A stretch of DNA of 64,000 bases, taken from positions 4,134,596 to 4,198,595 of the forward strand of contig NC_079236.1 of assembly GCF_028502605.1 (NCBI RefSeq). Direction: 5' to 3'. The notes below the pieces were generated by a model. That model saw only the letters and a program-made list of their open reading frames with translations, searched no databases and was not told the origin of the DNA. Made by a program: the position numbers and the translations under genes. Of this stretch, positions 31,483-64,000 are shown in pieces; positions within the stretch are counted from its first letter, which is position 1, and every line of letters starts with the position of its first letter. The stretch comes from Trichoderma breve (lineage: Eukaryota; Ascomycota; Sordariomycetes; Hypocreales; Hypocreaceae).

Positions 31483-34400
31483 ATGATAATCACAAACATG
31501 AAGAAGCTTTTTCGAAAACTCGTCTCTCGTGAAGATGATGGGGAAGACCATACAGCGACAACAGCAGCGAGGACGACAACAACAATTAAGACCACTAAAA
31601 AAAAGGATGGCTTCTTTTCAACTTATATGTATTCGAATAAAGAACTAGATAAAGCTATCACCGAAGCGGAAGACAAAATGATGGCAACCTCTCGAGAAGA
31701 CCCTAGTTTGCCCGAATACAAAGCAGCGCTCGCACAGCTGATGGCACAGAAGTACGCCGAATTATTCAAAGTGCCCATACACTCTCAACAAGTCCCGGGC
31801 TTTGTAAATAAATTGGTTAATATGACTCTCGTGCCAAGCATGTTTCGCGAAGCAATCAGTCTCATGGAGGAAGCCATTTCTACTACAGCCAAGGACAATG
31901 CACTCAACCGAGTCAAGTACTTGGGCCAATTAAGCCAGATGTACAAATTACGCCATAATCGAGTTGGGGAGTTGTCAGATCTGGAATACGCTATCAAGTA
32001 TGCGGATCAAGCGATACACGAGGTCCCCGACCCAGACATTTACACGGGATATGATCGACTGCTGAGCGATGTTTCTGACATGCATATGGCCAAATTTGAC
32101 TATACAGGTCAAATAGATGCTCTCAGAGACGGGATCAACAATGCAGAAAAAGCGCTGTCAATCAGCCGCGATCGAAACCCTGATCCCGATCCGATTCTGC
32201 TCGCCAAGCTTGCTGAAAATTACTTGCTTCGTTTTCATCACGATCAGCGATGGGAAGACCTCGAACAAGCACTGCAGTTAATGAGTGGAGCGGCAGCAGT
32301 AGCAGCGACAGGTACTCAAGAAGGTCATTCACAACGAGCACGAATTTGCAATGGGCTTGCAGAAGTACTCGCACAGCGGTATGAACGGCGACCTGAATAC
32401 ATTCATGATGTTAGGGAGGCTGTCACACTGATACAAAGCGCAATTGATGCCACTTCGACAAAAGATGTGGTACGTGTGAACTATTTGCTCAATCTTGCGT
32501 ATAGGCTTCGTGAGCGCTTCGCACTAGACCAGGACATCAAAGACTTGCATGAAGGCATCCAAGCCGTGGATGATGCCATCAATTTTGCTTTACTTGGTCA
32601 CCCCCGCTTTCTGGATATGCTACGATGTCGAGCCAAGTTGTTTAGTAGTCTCTTCCAGGTCACAAGTGATCTTCGTCATTATACGAAAGCCGAAGATAGT
32701 CTGAGAAAGGCTTTAGATCGCATACCCGATAATCACCCCAATCGGTGCGCTTTCCTCCTAGATAAGGCCGACCTAGTCTTGCTCAAAGAACAAGATGGGG
32801 GTAGAAGTACGCAGCTCTGGTGGGCTACTGAGATATGTTGCCAGGCCATGAATGATTGCACCAATAGTCCTCCATTGGATCGACTCAAGGCGGCATACAG
32901 AGGGGCAAGCCTGTATCTCGAGATGGGTGATTACAGTATGGCTGGTGGACTACTATGCAGGGGGATTGACTTTTTACCACGACTCAACCCACGCTCTCTT
33001 AGTAGAGACGACCAGCAGTTTATTCTTAGTCAATTCTCGGCTATGGCATCTGATGCAGCTGCATGTCTTCTCGAGGTGACAAAACAACCTGCTAGAGCCC
33101 TGGCCACACTGGAGAGTGGTCGGGGAGTCATAGCAAGCTTAATGATCAATTCACGGTCTGATGTTTCCGACCTTCAGAATAAGGATATCAGCCTATTCAA
33201 CCGGTACATTGAGCTTCGAGATGCCGTGTCGAGGAACATCAATGAGTTTAGCAACGCTACTAATGCAGGAGGAGCCGCTTCAGAAAAAGCTGTGGCCAAC
33301 GCTTTGTCTAGACGCGTTCAAGATGAACATGATTTACATCTTGTTGAGGAGAAGATTCGGACACTGGATGGTTTCGAAAGATTTCAACTGTCACCAACAG
33401 TCGAGAAACTCCAACATGCTGCTATTCATGGTCATATTGTTGTTTTCAACGTTGCGAAGTGGAGAAGCGATGCTATTATCGTCCCTCAACATCCCTCTAC
33501 TAGTATCCGCTATGTGTCTCTGCCAAGTCTCAAGTACGATGACCTAGAAAAATTCACCCCATGGGTCACAGGGAAGGAGAAAATAGTCTCCGGACCCATC
33601 AGCACAAAAGCAGACAGGAATGGCAAAATGCGGAAACTTCTGCAATATTTATGGAGGAAAGCTGTCGCCCCGGTTTTAGAGGACCTCGGAATCAACACGA
33701 AGCAGGGTTCCGCAACCGATGAGCTCCCGCGGATTTGGTGGGTTATGAGTGGAATCATGTCTGTCTTCCCCCTTCATGCAGCAGGCGAGGACTGGGGAGG
33801 AGAGTCTTCGTTTGAGAACACAGCGAGCCACGTTATCTCGTCTTACATACCCACAATCAAAGCCTTGCAATACGCTCGTGACAAGAACGTCAGGAATCTA
33901 TCGGAACGAGGTCAGAGCTTTTTGATCGCTAGTATGCCCGAGACAGAAGGAATGAGGCCTTTAAAAGTCTCAGGAGAAGTCGCAGCAGTTAAGGGTTGTG
34001 CTGCTTCTTTTCAAGTTGATAAGGTCGTCGCAGTTGATACTCCTTCAAAGGAATCAGTCTTGGAAGAACTCAAGTCAACACGCATAGCACATTTCATTTG
34101 CCATGGTGCTCTCGACATCAGCAATCCTTCTGACAGTTGCCTACTCTTCAAACAAGATGATGTCGATGGAAAGGCTGGACGTTTAAGGGTTCGGGATGTC
34201 GCAGCCTTATCCATGGAGCATGCGCATATCGCATACCTTTCGGCATGCTCGACAGCAGAGACAGCGGATAAAACACTTGTCGACGAAACAATCCATCTCG
34301 CAAGTAGCTTTCAATTAGTTGGCTTTCCGCATGTTATCGGCACTACTTGGGAAGCAAATAATACCGTCGCCGAAAAGATCGCAAGGAATTTTTATACTTT

Positions 34401-34557
34401 TCTAATCGACCAAGAGCGAGCGTTTCCACAAGATGATAGAAGCGTTGCTTACGCTTTGCACAAGGCTGTAAAAGCTTATTGGAGTCAGTCTAAAGGAAGA
34501 TTTCAACCGAGCGATGATGTTATCGCGTGGGCACCATTCATTCACATTGGCATGTAG
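31483..34557 (+). CDS. TPR-repeat CHAT protease (caspase-like), partner of the gasdermin-like gene
   Basis: Intronless 1024-codon gene. The ATG at 31498 has a better context (A at -3) than that at 31483. Residues about 1-45 are basic and Thr-rich. About 50-560 are a helical solenoid of TPR-like repeats (RVNYLLNLAYRLRERF, AKLAENYLLRF, LDKADLVLLKE). About 640-1024 form a CHAT domain, a clan CD caspase-like peptidase. The catalytic pair is visible as FICHGA (His 874) and LSACSTAE (Cys 922), followed by QLVGFPHVIGTTWEANN, AYALHKAV and WAPFIHIG at the end. CHAT-TPR proteins act as activated proteases: bacterial TPR-CHAT in the type III-E CRISPR craspase and CHAT proteases that cleave gasdermins are known. 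The stop lies 80 bp from the stop of a convergent gasdermin-like gene, which suggests that this enzyme cleaves it. The TPRs probably sense the trigger. Confidence 0.9.
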   Translation: MIITNMKKLFRKLVSREDDGEDHTATTAARTTTTIKTTKKKDGFFSTYMYSNKELDKAITEAEDKMMATSREDPSLPEYKAALAQLMAQKYAELFKVPIHSQQVPGFVNKLVNMTLVPSMFREAISLMEEAISTTAKDNALNRVKYLGQLSQMYKLRHNRVGELSDLEYAIKYADQAIHEVPDPDIYTGYDRLLSDVSDMHMAKFDYTGQIDALRDGINNAEKALSISRDRNPDPDPILLAKLAENYLLRFHHDQRWEDLEQALQLMSGAAAVAATGTQEGHSQRARICNGLAEVLAQRYERRPEYIHDVREAVTLIQSAIDATSTKDVVRVNYLLNLAYRLRERFALDQDIKDLHEGIQAVDDAINFALLGHPRFLDMLRCRAKLFSSLFQVTSDLRHYTKAEDSLRKALDRIPDNHPNRCAFLLDKADLVLLKEQDGGRSTQLWWATEICCQAMNDCTNSPPLDRLKAAYRGASLYLEMGDYSMAGGLLCRGIDFLPRLNPRSLSRDDQQFILSQFSAMASDAAACLLEVTKQPARALATLESGRGVIASLMINSRSDVSDLQNKDISLFNRYIELRDAVSRNINEFSNATNAGGAASEKAVANALSRRVQDEHDLHLVEEKIRTLDGFERFQLSPTVEKLQHAAIHGHIVVFNVAKWRSDAIIVPQHPSTSIRYVSLPSLKYDDLEKFTPWVTGKEKIVSGPISTKADRNGKMRKLLQYLWRKAVAPVLEDLGINTKQGSATDELPRIWWVMSGIMSVFPLHAAGEDWGGESSFENTASHVISSYIPTIKALQYARDKNVRNLSERGQSFLIASMPETEGMRPLKVSGEVAAVKGCAASFQVDKVVAVDTPSKESVLEELKSTRIAHFICHGALDISNPSDSCLLFKQDDVDGKAGRLRVRDVAALSMEHAHIAYLSACSTAETADKTLVDETIHLASSFQLVGFPHVIGTTWEANNTVAEKIARNFYTFLIDQERAFPQDDRSVAYALHKAVKAYWSQSKGRFQPSDDVIAWAPFIHIGM

Positions 34558-34637
34558 CTAGTTGCTCTCTATAAGAGGCCATTATAGGGGCACACTAACT
34601 GAGGATAATGGGAGGACAAGATAAGATTCAGCCATAT

Positions 34638-35468
34638 TCACACAGAAAAAACTTCACCGGGCGCAATTTCTTCGTCTTCATCGTTCTCGTCAACCTCATC
34701 ATCAAGATTAGCCTCAACCACCTCGTCTTCATCATCCTCGCCTCTATTTTCTGAAGCCATTACCCAACAATTATCCGATTGCATTCTAGCATGTTTGATG
34801 TCCCTGCGTAAGAAGAATTTGAAGGTGATCTTCCGATAACAAAATGCAAATATTCGTTCTCCTGGTGCTTTGATAATCTCGGTGTCTAGACCACCATGAC
34901 CATGTTTTGCGCTGATTCCGGCGTCCAAGTCGATGCCAGGGACTGCGACACCTGTAGTCGCAGTCACAATGTCGTTTACGGGGATCTTAGCGTCAAAGCT
35001 CTCCATTCGGGATTCTTGATTAACTCTGCCAATTGTGGCATCTACAACGGTGTAATAGGCAGTGATAAAGTAGAGAGCTTTGGTGCCGTTCTCGATCTCA
35101 TTTTGAAACCATTCCTTTGCGTCGTCATCGCCACTACAGATGCGATTGAATAGAGCCTTTGGCTGTGAGAGTTCGTAAAGTTTGGTCATGCATTTGGAAA
35201 GCATGTTCATGTTGACATTCTGGCCCTCGTATGATGCTGAAAGGAGATTTGTAAGTTGGGCTGAGATTGATGAGTTGTTGCTGGTAAGAAACAGTCGGCC
35301 AAGGCTGTCTTGCTCTTGCAGAAGAATATCTGGCCCTCCTATTTTAACTGGAAATTTGGTGCTGGAGAATGCATCTTGATGCGGCTGACGAATATTGGGG
35401 ACAATGCTACCAAGTTGGACGGCGTCACGCACTGGTGCCACAGCAGGTATAAAGAATTTCTTCGCCAT
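34638..35468 (-). CDS. Gasdermin-like pore-forming protein (fungal RCD-1/HET-Q1 type), putative CHAT substrate
   Basis: Single-exon gene for 276 residues, within the length range of fungal gasdermin-like proteins. I see an N-terminal KKFFIPAVAPVRDAVQLG, a central helical part, an ALYFITAYYTVVDATIG strand segment (about 131-147), TGVAVPGIDLDAG (about 172-184) and PGERIFAFCYRKITFKFF (about 202-219). The order strand, glycine-rich loop, then PGE-IFA-YRK is what I associate with the fungal gasdermin fold, but this is recognition by eye. The last ~36 residues are extremely acidic (EDDEDE, DENDEDEE), suiting a short autoinhibitory tail removed by proteolysis. Fungal gasdermin genes are known to cluster with protease genes (het-Q1/het-Q2), and here the neighbour is a CHAT protease. 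The reading frame is intact. Alternative: an unrelated acidic protein. Confidence 0.68.
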   Translation of the reverse strand: MAKKFFIPAVAPVRDAVQLGSIVPNIRQPHQDAFSSTKFPVKIGGPDILLQEQDSLGRLFLTSNNSSISAQLTNLLSASYEGQNVNMNMLSKCMTKLYELSQPKALFNRICSGDDDAKEWFQNEIENGTKALYFITAYYTVVDATIGRVNQESRMESFDAKIPVNDIVTATTGVAVPGIDLDAGISAKHGHGGLDTEIIKAPGERIFAFCYRKITFKFFLRRDIKHARMQSDNCWVMASENRGEDDEDEVVEANLDDEVDENDEDEEIAPGEVFSV

Positions 35469-63918: not shown

Positions 63919-64000
63919 GGGTTAGGGTTAGGGTTAGGGTTAGGGTTAGGGTTAGGGTTAGGGTTAGGGTTAGGGTTAGGGTTAGGGTTAGGGTTAGGGA
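63919..64000 (+). repeat. Telomere: TTAGGG array, about 13 repeats
   Basis: Uninterrupted (TTAGGG)n to the end of the window. Its G-rich strand runs 5'-3' toward the end, as at a right chromosome end. The very last base is A instead of T, an edge effect or a sequencing artefact. Confidence 0.98.

What the first reader, a model, noticed from the sequence alone, without database searches (positions are those of the whole stretch)
31483..35468. CHAT protease and gasdermin-like gene in a compact convergent pair: a candidate two-component cell-death module
Seen: a 1024-residue TPR-CHAT protein with an intact His 874/Cys 922 pair faces a 276-residue protein with gasdermin-like central motifs and a very acidic C-terminal tail. 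Only 80 bp separate the stop codons, and both genes are intronless and intact. Known: fungal gasdermins (RCD-1, HET-Q1) kill cells as membrane pores, HET-Q1 is activated by the protease HET-Q2, and gasdermin genes are often next to protease genes. Bacterial gasdermins are likewise activated by adjacent proteases, including CHAT types. Inference: the CHAT enzyme cuts off the acidic tail, and the TPR part senses a non-self or stress signal. A TPR sensor without an NLR NACHT/NB-ARC domain would be a variant architecture for fungi.
Basis: partly seen in the sequence, partly recalled or inferred. Interest (0 to 1): 0.88.

Follow-up and report, generated by a model that had tools for sequence, protein, structure and literature searches.

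The report
Fungal gasdermin with its CHAT protease
Near a chromosome end of a Trichoderma-type fungus sit two facing genes, one for a likely membrane-pore (gasdermin) cell-death protein and one for the caspase-like protease that probably switches it on; pairs of this kind are already known in fungi, so this is a good new example and not a new system.

Summary
A 1024-aa ORF (31483-34557, +) with a C-terminal CHAT domain (PF12770, E 3.5e-31) and intact His874/Cys922 faces a 276-aa ORF (34638-35468, -), 80 bp between stop codons. The 276-aa protein has no Pfam or direct PDB match and its AlphaFold model failed (pLDDT 33.5). The gasdermin call was made stepwise: nine further gasdermin genes lie in the same genome; a profile of four matches RCD-1 (E 5.8e-20) and HET-Q1 (7.7e-7); the window family aligns to the nine-member profile over 186 columns (probability 88%, E 3.2e-6; best of 300 shuffles scored 25.0 against 45.9), weaker in some leave-one-out builds but always ranked first. 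The CHAT protein is modelled as an alpha-solenoid plus CHAT domain, closest to Csx29/TPR-CHAT and separase. The novelty claim fails: reviews describe TPR-, ANK- and WD40-bearing proteases without an NLR core as common gasdermin partners, CHAT as 17-19% of them, and a Podospora TPR-CHAT that activates its gasdermin. Verdict: new member of a known kind. A side result may be new: six of seven protease-linked gasdermin genes here are tail-to-tail with 45-143 bp between stops, across two protease classes. Cleavage and killing remain inferred.

The parts
31483..34557 (+). TPR-CHAT protease gene, 1024 aa, single open frame with stop TAG
   Evidence: ORF; PF12770 E 3.5e-31; AlphaFold pLDDT 79.7; Foldseek best matches Csx29/TPR-CHAT and separase
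31636..33360 (+). alpha-solenoid (TPR-like) part, residues 52-626, putative sensor
   Evidence: successive helices in the model; TPR superhelix matches (OGT, consensus TPR); Pfam TPR only E 0.23
33634..34551 (+). CHAT domain, residues 718-1023; His874 at 34102-34104, Cys922 at 34246-34248
   Evidence: codons; conservation of H874 and C922; alignment to 7zoq
34558..34637 (.). 80-bp spacer between the two stop codons (tail-to-tail)
34638..35468 (-). fungal gasdermin-family gene, 276 aa, single open frame with stop TGA
   Evidence: ORF; profile hit E 6.3e-4, first of 551 window ORF fragments; hhalign 88%, E 3.2e-6; leave-one-out builds
34809..35468 (-). gasdermin pore-forming-type domain, residues 1 to about 220
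   Evidence: aligned columns 15-218; alignment A5
34641..34808 (-). C-terminal tail, residues 221-276 (21 D/E, 5 K/R of 56; last 36 residues 18 D/E, 1 K/R): putative inhibitory, cleavable segment
   Evidence: the HET-Q1 parallel (40 residues removed) is; cleavage itself is inferred

Best explanation
A two-gene regulated cell-death module of the known fungal gasdermin/protease type. The 276-aa protein is a fungal gasdermin held inactive by its short acidic C-terminal tail (family membership supported by profile comparison; inhibition inferred). The 1024-aa protein is a CHAT cysteine protease on a long TPR-like solenoid (supported by domain, dyad and model). When the solenoid senses a signal, perhaps a non-self or damage cue after hyphal fusion (inferred), the CHAT domain cuts the gasdermin near the start of the tail (inferred from Podospora precedents); the freed N-terminal domain assembles into plasma-membrane pores and kills the cell (inferred from RCD-1 and HET-Q1).
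For: PF12770 E 3.5e-31; His/Cys dyad conserved in 19 aligned sequences; solenoid plus CHAT model, pLDDT 79.7, best matches Csx29/TPR-CHAT and separase. Gasdermin: nine own-genome relatives; profile of four hits RCD-1-2 at 5.8e-20 and HET-Q1 at 7.7e-7; window ORF first of 551, E 6.3e-4, next best 5.9; hhalign 88%, E 3.2e-6, 186 columns, score 45.9 against 25.0 for the best of 300 shuffles; still ranked first in all ten reduced profiles. Seven of ten gasdermin genes here lie beside an S8 or CHAT gene. Nine of ten carry a 53-70-residue acidic segment after the last conserved strand. Published precedents, read as passages.
Against: No direct hit of the 276-aa protein to Pfam, PADLOC, NCBIfam or PDB chains; searching its own genome with it finds only itself. 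The four-member profile alone is not significant (E 0.66; hhalign 16.6%). The nine-member result depends on its make-up: leaving out one or two members, E ranges from 6.9e-5 to 0.038 and hhalign probability from 23 to 92%. AlphaFold model uninformative. PF04598 finds nothing in the genome. No named species was seen to carry both proteins, and linkage elsewhere could not be viewed. No expression, cleavage or death data.
Confidence: 0.77

Rival explanations
1. The 276-aa protein is a gasdermin, but is activated without cleavage, as RCD-1 is by meeting a different allele; the CHAT gene is a neighbour with another substrate.
For: RCD-1 is cleavage-independent. The joint profile scores RCD-1 above HET-Q1.
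Against: The protein has a 56-residue acidic tail and is close to HET-Q1 in length (276 against 278 aa). More than 80% of fungal gasdermin genes are reported as clustered with a protease gene, and CHAT is a known activator.
Confidence: 0.1
2. The two genes are unrelated neighbours near a chromosome end; the CHAT protein acts in another pathway.
For: The pair lies about 28.5 kb from telomere-type repeats, and ten flanking ORFs scanned (of 39 of at least 150 aa in the window) look like ordinary enzymes, a transporter and a transcription factor. Co-occurrence in a second genome was not seen.
Against: Only 80 bp separate the stops, and five of the six S8-linked gasdermin genes found in this genome show the same tail-to-tail layout.
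Confidence: 0.07
3. The gasdermin fold has been kept for a non-lethal purpose (for example secretion) or the pair is silent.
For: No expression data; one review raises roles in other processes such as secretion.
Against: Both frames are intact. The gasdermin has relatives at 87-99% (T. harzianum, T. chlorosporum, one unnamed), the CHAT protein at 88% in T. velutinum, 75% in an incomplete T. pleuroticola protein and 79-95% in unnamed sources.
Confidence: 0.04

Closest known systems
Podospora anserina TPR-CHAT / gasdermin two-gene cluster (Clave et al. 2022, known here only through reviews)
   Same: gasdermin gene clustered with a TPR-bearing CHAT protease gene
   Different: different species and sequences; activation was shown there and is only inferred here; gene orientation there not seen
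HET-Q1 / HET-Q2 of Podospora anserina
   Same: gasdermin of nearly equal length (276 and 278 aa) with a short C-terminal segment, controlled by a protease
   Different: the partner is an S8 subtilase there, a CHAT cysteine protease here
RCD-1 of Neurospora crassa
   Same: homologous pore-forming domain, through the own-genome relatives
   Different: RCD-1 works by pairing of two alleles without cleavage
Aspergillus fumigatus hetB
   Same: large CHAT protein, there a proven heterokaryon-incompatibility gene
   Different: 1,327 residues, presence/absence polymorphism; gasdermin partner not established there; allelic state here untested
Csx29 (Craspase TPR-CHAT) and separase
   Same: solenoid plus CHAT/separase-type protease fold
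   Different: different partners and substrates; 10-14% identity over the structural alignments listed

Membership tests
Fungal gasdermin (RCD-1/HET-Q1 family) | sequence homology over the pore-forming domain | tested here: met
   direct PDB and Pfam searches found nothing; through nine own-genome relatives: hhalign E 3.2e-6, first of 551 ORF fragments, with leave-one-out spread 23-92% probability; relatives to RCD-1 5.8e-20
Fungal gasdermin (RCD-1/HET-Q1 family) | gasdermin fold | tested here: inconclusive
   AlphaFold with a 4-row alignment, pLDDT 33.5
Fungal gasdermin (RCD-1/HET-Q1 family) | short C-terminal segment after the conserved domain | tested here: met
   56 residues, 21 D/E; HET-Q1 loses 40 residues
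Fungal gasdermin (RCD-1/HET-Q1 family) | pore formation and killing | not testable with these tools
   needs bench work
CHAT protease | PF12770 domain with His-Cys dyad | tested here: met
   H874 and C922 conserved
CHAT protease | proteolytic activity | not testable with these tools
   needs bench work
TPR-CHAT architecture | TPR-type solenoid fused to CHAT | tested here: met
   Pfam TPR models alone do not reach significance
Fungal gasdermin/protease two-gene cluster | adjacent genes | tested here: met
   80 bp between stops
Fungal gasdermin/protease two-gene cluster | pair kept together in other genomes | tested here: inconclusive
   each protein has Trichoderma relatives, but no named species appeared in both lists and linkage was not visible
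Fungal gasdermin/protease two-gene cluster | protease cleaves and activates the gasdermin | not testable with these tools
   inferred
Fungal NLR | NACHT or NB-ARC domain | tested here: not met
   no such domain among Pfam matches up to E 1
Heterokaryon-incompatibility locus | allelic polymorphism controlling compatibility | not tested
   isolate genomes were not available

The most novel reading that the evidence does not exclude
The tail-to-tail layout is itself part of the device: gasdermin and protease genes are held convergent with close or overlapping 3' ends so that their transcription is mutually limiting, and the protease class can be exchanged (S8 for CHAT) without losing the layout. 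In this genome six of seven protease-linked gasdermin genes found fit (45, 80, 89, 101, 132 and 143 bp between stops; five S8, one CHAT), the seventh being on the same strand. The transcriptional part is speculation; no transcript data were seen.
Probability: 0.15. Interest if true: 0.55.

Novelty: new member of a known kind. Interest (0 to 1): 0.33.

Why it matters
It gives an intact, compact gasdermin/TPR-CHAT pair without introns in a Trichoderma-type fungus, which is easy to clone and to delete. What activates such sensors is named as a major open question in one review. The genome also offers an internal comparison: one CHAT-linked and six S8-linked gasdermin genes, and three without a listed protease neighbour, in one strain. 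The shared tail-to-tail layout, if it holds in other species, would be a simple clue to how cells keep a lethal pair in check.

Tried and rejected
Direct recognition of the 276-aa protein failed: Pfam, PADLOC, NCBIfam and PDB sequence searches, the gasdermin model PF04598 in the own genome (of its 14 control genomes it rang only in E. coli, below cut-off), its own genome searched with the protein itself (only the self match), and two protein-database searches that returned the same three clusters, two named Trichoderma and one unnamed. AlphaFold with four near-identical rows gave no usable model, so no fold search was run on it.

The first attempt to find relatives beside S8 genes took five loci: four held, by my reading, secreted or sedolisin-type proteases, one (L038) a HET-Q2-like one, and no gasdermin was recognised in any. 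A motif filter plus my judgement then chose six more loci (five from the filter, the C7:0.81 Mb one by judgement; two filter hits, L011 and L015, were not pursued). Five of the six held a gasdermin ORF; L045 had none recognised. A four-member profile was too weak for the window protein (E 0.66, 16.6%); nine members sufficed. In one search the single left-out-member scores failed to parse; only those of the two-member drop are valid.

Considered: bacterial origin of the CHAT gene. The best matches outside the close Trichoderma-type group are actinobacterial by name or unnamed, 24-32% identical, and the 80 prokaryote loci kept, of 145 confirmed, all carry titles of genera that I know as actinobacterial. 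Left open: the 5.8-billion search scored only the 7996 candidates sharing most words, possibly crowded by the Thr/Lys-rich N-terminus, and no other fungal CHAT was available except a distant one in the same genome (L004). A scan of 3804 ORFs around those 80 loci with the fungal gasdermin profile found nothing at E up to 1, though a fungal profile may well miss bacterial gasdermins.

Rejected: the CHAT protein being an NLR (no NB domain).
Full report
OBSERVATION. The window is the last 64 kb of contig C5 of a 38.5-Mb genome in 9 contigs and ends in 13 TTAGGG units from 63922 on, so the finding lies about 28.5 kb from a chromosome end. The closest named proteins are from Trichoderma: the 276-aa protein is 99% identical to a T. 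harzianum hypothetical protein and 87% to one of T. chlorosporum. Both ORFs are as described: 31483-34557 on the + strand (1024 aa) and 34638-35468 on the - strand (276 aa), with 80 bp between the stop codons. The closest CHAT protein (P0004) starts at the window protein's Met6, so the true start may be 15 bases downstream.

CHAT PROTEIN. PF12770 matches residues 718-1023 at E 3.5e-31. In an alignment of the window protein with 18 of the 20 database hits (P0008 and P0023 left out), C922 is invariant and H874 nearly so. By sequence the only PDB match at E up to 0.01 is the TPR-CHAT chain 7zoq (E 0.0028), with both dyad residues aligned. AlphaFold gave mean pLDDT 79.7: helices from residue 52 to 626, then the mixed alpha/beta CHAT part; residues 1-51, Thr/Lys-rich, have low confidence. 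Foldseek against the PDB ranks Csx29/TPR-CHAT first and human separase fifth, with O-GlcNAc transferase and designed TPR superhelices further down. TM-scores for the TPR-CHAT chains are modest (0.31-0.39 by query), so the fold class and not the detailed shape is supported. There is no NACHT or NB-ARC domain among the Pfam matches.

GASDERMIN. Direct searches were negative, the genome searched with the protein gave only itself, and the AlphaFold run on four near-identical rows was useless (pLDDT 33.5). I therefore looked for gasdermins beside HET-Q2-like S8 protease genes in the same genome. A first set of five loci held none. Of six more, five held a 204-295-aa gasdermin-like ORF next to the S8 gene. 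Searches of the genome with three of these proteins brought the total to nine besides the window protein. Two of the nine were weak in those searches: C2:0.256 Mb (best E 6.0e-10) is secure, C7:2.89 Mb only reached 0.024; against a profile of the other seven they score 7.2e-28 and 6.6e-24, though that profile was aligned without a test of independence beyond leaving them out. A profile of four of the nine matches RCD-1-2 (8jyz_B, E 5.8e-20), RCD-1-1 (4.8e-15) and the HET-Q1 pore (9uv9_A, 7.7e-7), so these are gasdermins.

The window family was then tested. Against the four-member profile the result was not significant (hhalign 16.6%; hmmsearch E 0.66). Against all nine, the window ORF ranks first of 551 window ORF fragments at E 6.3e-4 (best single stretch 0.0031) while the next reaches only 5.9. 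hhalign of the family without its acidic tail gives probability 88%, E 3.2e-6 for the single comparison, over 186 columns; the best of 300 column shuffles scored 25.0 against 45.9, and the reversed family 15.4. With the full protein the values are 92.7% and 4.3e-7. Ten reduced profiles (each member left out once, and two left out together) all rank the window ORF first, with E from 6.9e-5 to 0.038 and hhalign probability from 23 to 92%, scores 30.7-49.7. So the homology is well supported but not overwhelming. A joint profile of 11 sequences (window, P0002, nine relatives) matches RCD-1-1 at 5.9e-21, HET-Q1 at 2e-10 and, weakly, a gasdermin chain 7n50 at 0.064; three unrelated chains follow at 0.37. 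Most members of that profile are the relatives, so these values mainly restate. In pairwise tests the window protein's best match is the C2 gene (E 3.5e-4 in a nine-sequence set; P0002 reaches 6.6e-6).

TAIL. The segment after the last conserved strand, cut by a motif rule of mine, is rich in Asp and Glu: D/E fraction 0.18-0.38 against 0.07-0.14 in the body for the ten proteins. In nine of ten the segment is 53-70 residues; the C2 gene's open frame has only 14 (3 D/E). The window protein has the highest fraction (21 of 56; 18 of the last 36). HET-Q1 (278 aa) loses 40 C-terminal residues after F238 to the subtilase HET-Q2 (PMC10989679, passages). Tail removal by the CHAT protein is therefore a well-grounded inference, not a result.

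LAYOUT. Seven of the ten gasdermin genes lie beside a protease gene: six S8 and one CHAT; for the other three no listed S8 or CHAT match is near, but those lists are lower bounds and only about 1.5 kb of flank was held for each. Five of the S8 pairs were found by looking beside S8 genes, so the share of linked genes is not an unbiased figure, though the later searches by sequence found the same five. Six of the seven pairs are tail-to-tail, with 45, 80, 89, 101, 132 and 143 bp between stop codons; the seventh is on the same strand. Two HET-Q2-like S8 loci held no recognised gasdermin (L038, L045). A DUF7580 part precedes the S8 part in four of the five convergent S8 cases. The S8 pairs may descend from one arrangement, so they are not independent; the CHAT pair, with an unrelated protease, is the informative one. 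I did not find the layout in two reviews searched for orientation words; one library search with the terms gasdermin, fungi, convergent, protease, gene cluster and tail-to-tail gave 12 papers, and none of the 10 listed titles concerns it (listing only). The primary paper is not held, so priority is unknown.

COMPARISON WITH THE KNOWN. [quoted passage not shown] about 17% of the protease domains are cysteine proteases, among them CHAT; a large fraction carry WD40, ANK or TPR repeats and only a small subset are NLRs; a TPR-bearing CHAT protease of P. anserina activates its gasdermin. Passages of PMC10197012: about 63% S8 and 19% CHAT; about 1900 gasdermins in 400 genomes. Passages of PMC10989679: some Trichoderma strains carry up to 23 RCD-1 homologues. 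Passages of PMC11138114: hetB of A. fumigatus, a heterokaryon-incompatibility gene, encodes a CHAT protein with a presence/absence polymorphism; its authors leave a gasdermin partner open. Passages of PMC11760362 were seen for RCD-1. The Clave et al. 2022 paper itself was not readable.

HOW IT MOST LIKELY WORKS. Supported here: gasdermin family membership, CHAT domain with intact dyad, solenoid, adjacency, acidic tail. Inferred: auto-inhibition by the tail, cleavage by the neighbour, pores, death, and sensing by the solenoid. The trigger is unknown; allorecognition is plausible but untested. Compared with P0004 and P0006 the solenoid and the CHAT part are equally conserved (95.3 and 95.1%; 80.6 and 80.9%), so there is no sign of faster change in the putative sensor in these few sequences.

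VERDICT. A sound finding whose biology is very probably real but already described as a class: new member of a known kind.

Noticed in passing
L043 3027-3854; L044 2619-3467; L046 2736-3581; L047 4652-5503; L051 1402-2013; L053 1438-2217; L054 1303-2259; L055 1483-2271; L056 1450-2418: Nine further gasdermin genes in the same genome, six next to an S8 protease gene.
   Followed up: yes
L053 508-2217: A DUF7580 ORF (Pfam E 2.8e-30) is followed in the same frame, after a single stop codon, by a gasdermin ORF, with no S8 part seen in the flank held; it could be an intron, two genes or a DUF7580-gasdermin fusion.
   Followed up: no
L055 1483-2271: A gasdermin whose open frame has only 14 residues after the last conserved strand and no protease neighbour in the lists; possibly an RCD-1-like, cleavage-independent type (or a further exon was missed). 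It is the window protein's best pairwise match among the nine.
   Followed up: partly
L065-L144: Long TPR-CHAT relatives of the window protein, 26-34% identical, are frequent in actinobacteria; all 80 kept loci (of 145 confirmed) carry titles of genera I know as actinobacterial.
   Followed up: partly
window 63922-64000: The window ends in a run of 13 TTAGGG units, i.e. a chromosome end.
   Followed up: no
L004 1-2388 and L005 670-2916: Two other CHAT-family matches in the genome: a large CHAT ORF (1129-aa open frame) with no gasdermin recognised in the small flank held, and a weak one with stops inside.
   Followed up: partly
P0007 (T. pleuroticola): The T. pleuroticola CHAT protein lacks several blocks present in the others (742 aa), which may reflect a poor gene model or a decaying gene.
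   Followed up: no
L038 2803-5832: A 1010-aa open frame combining S8 motifs, a protein-kinase-like stretch and ankyrin-like repeats (read by eye from the translation), without a recognised gasdermin in the 7.5 kb fetched.
   Followed up: no
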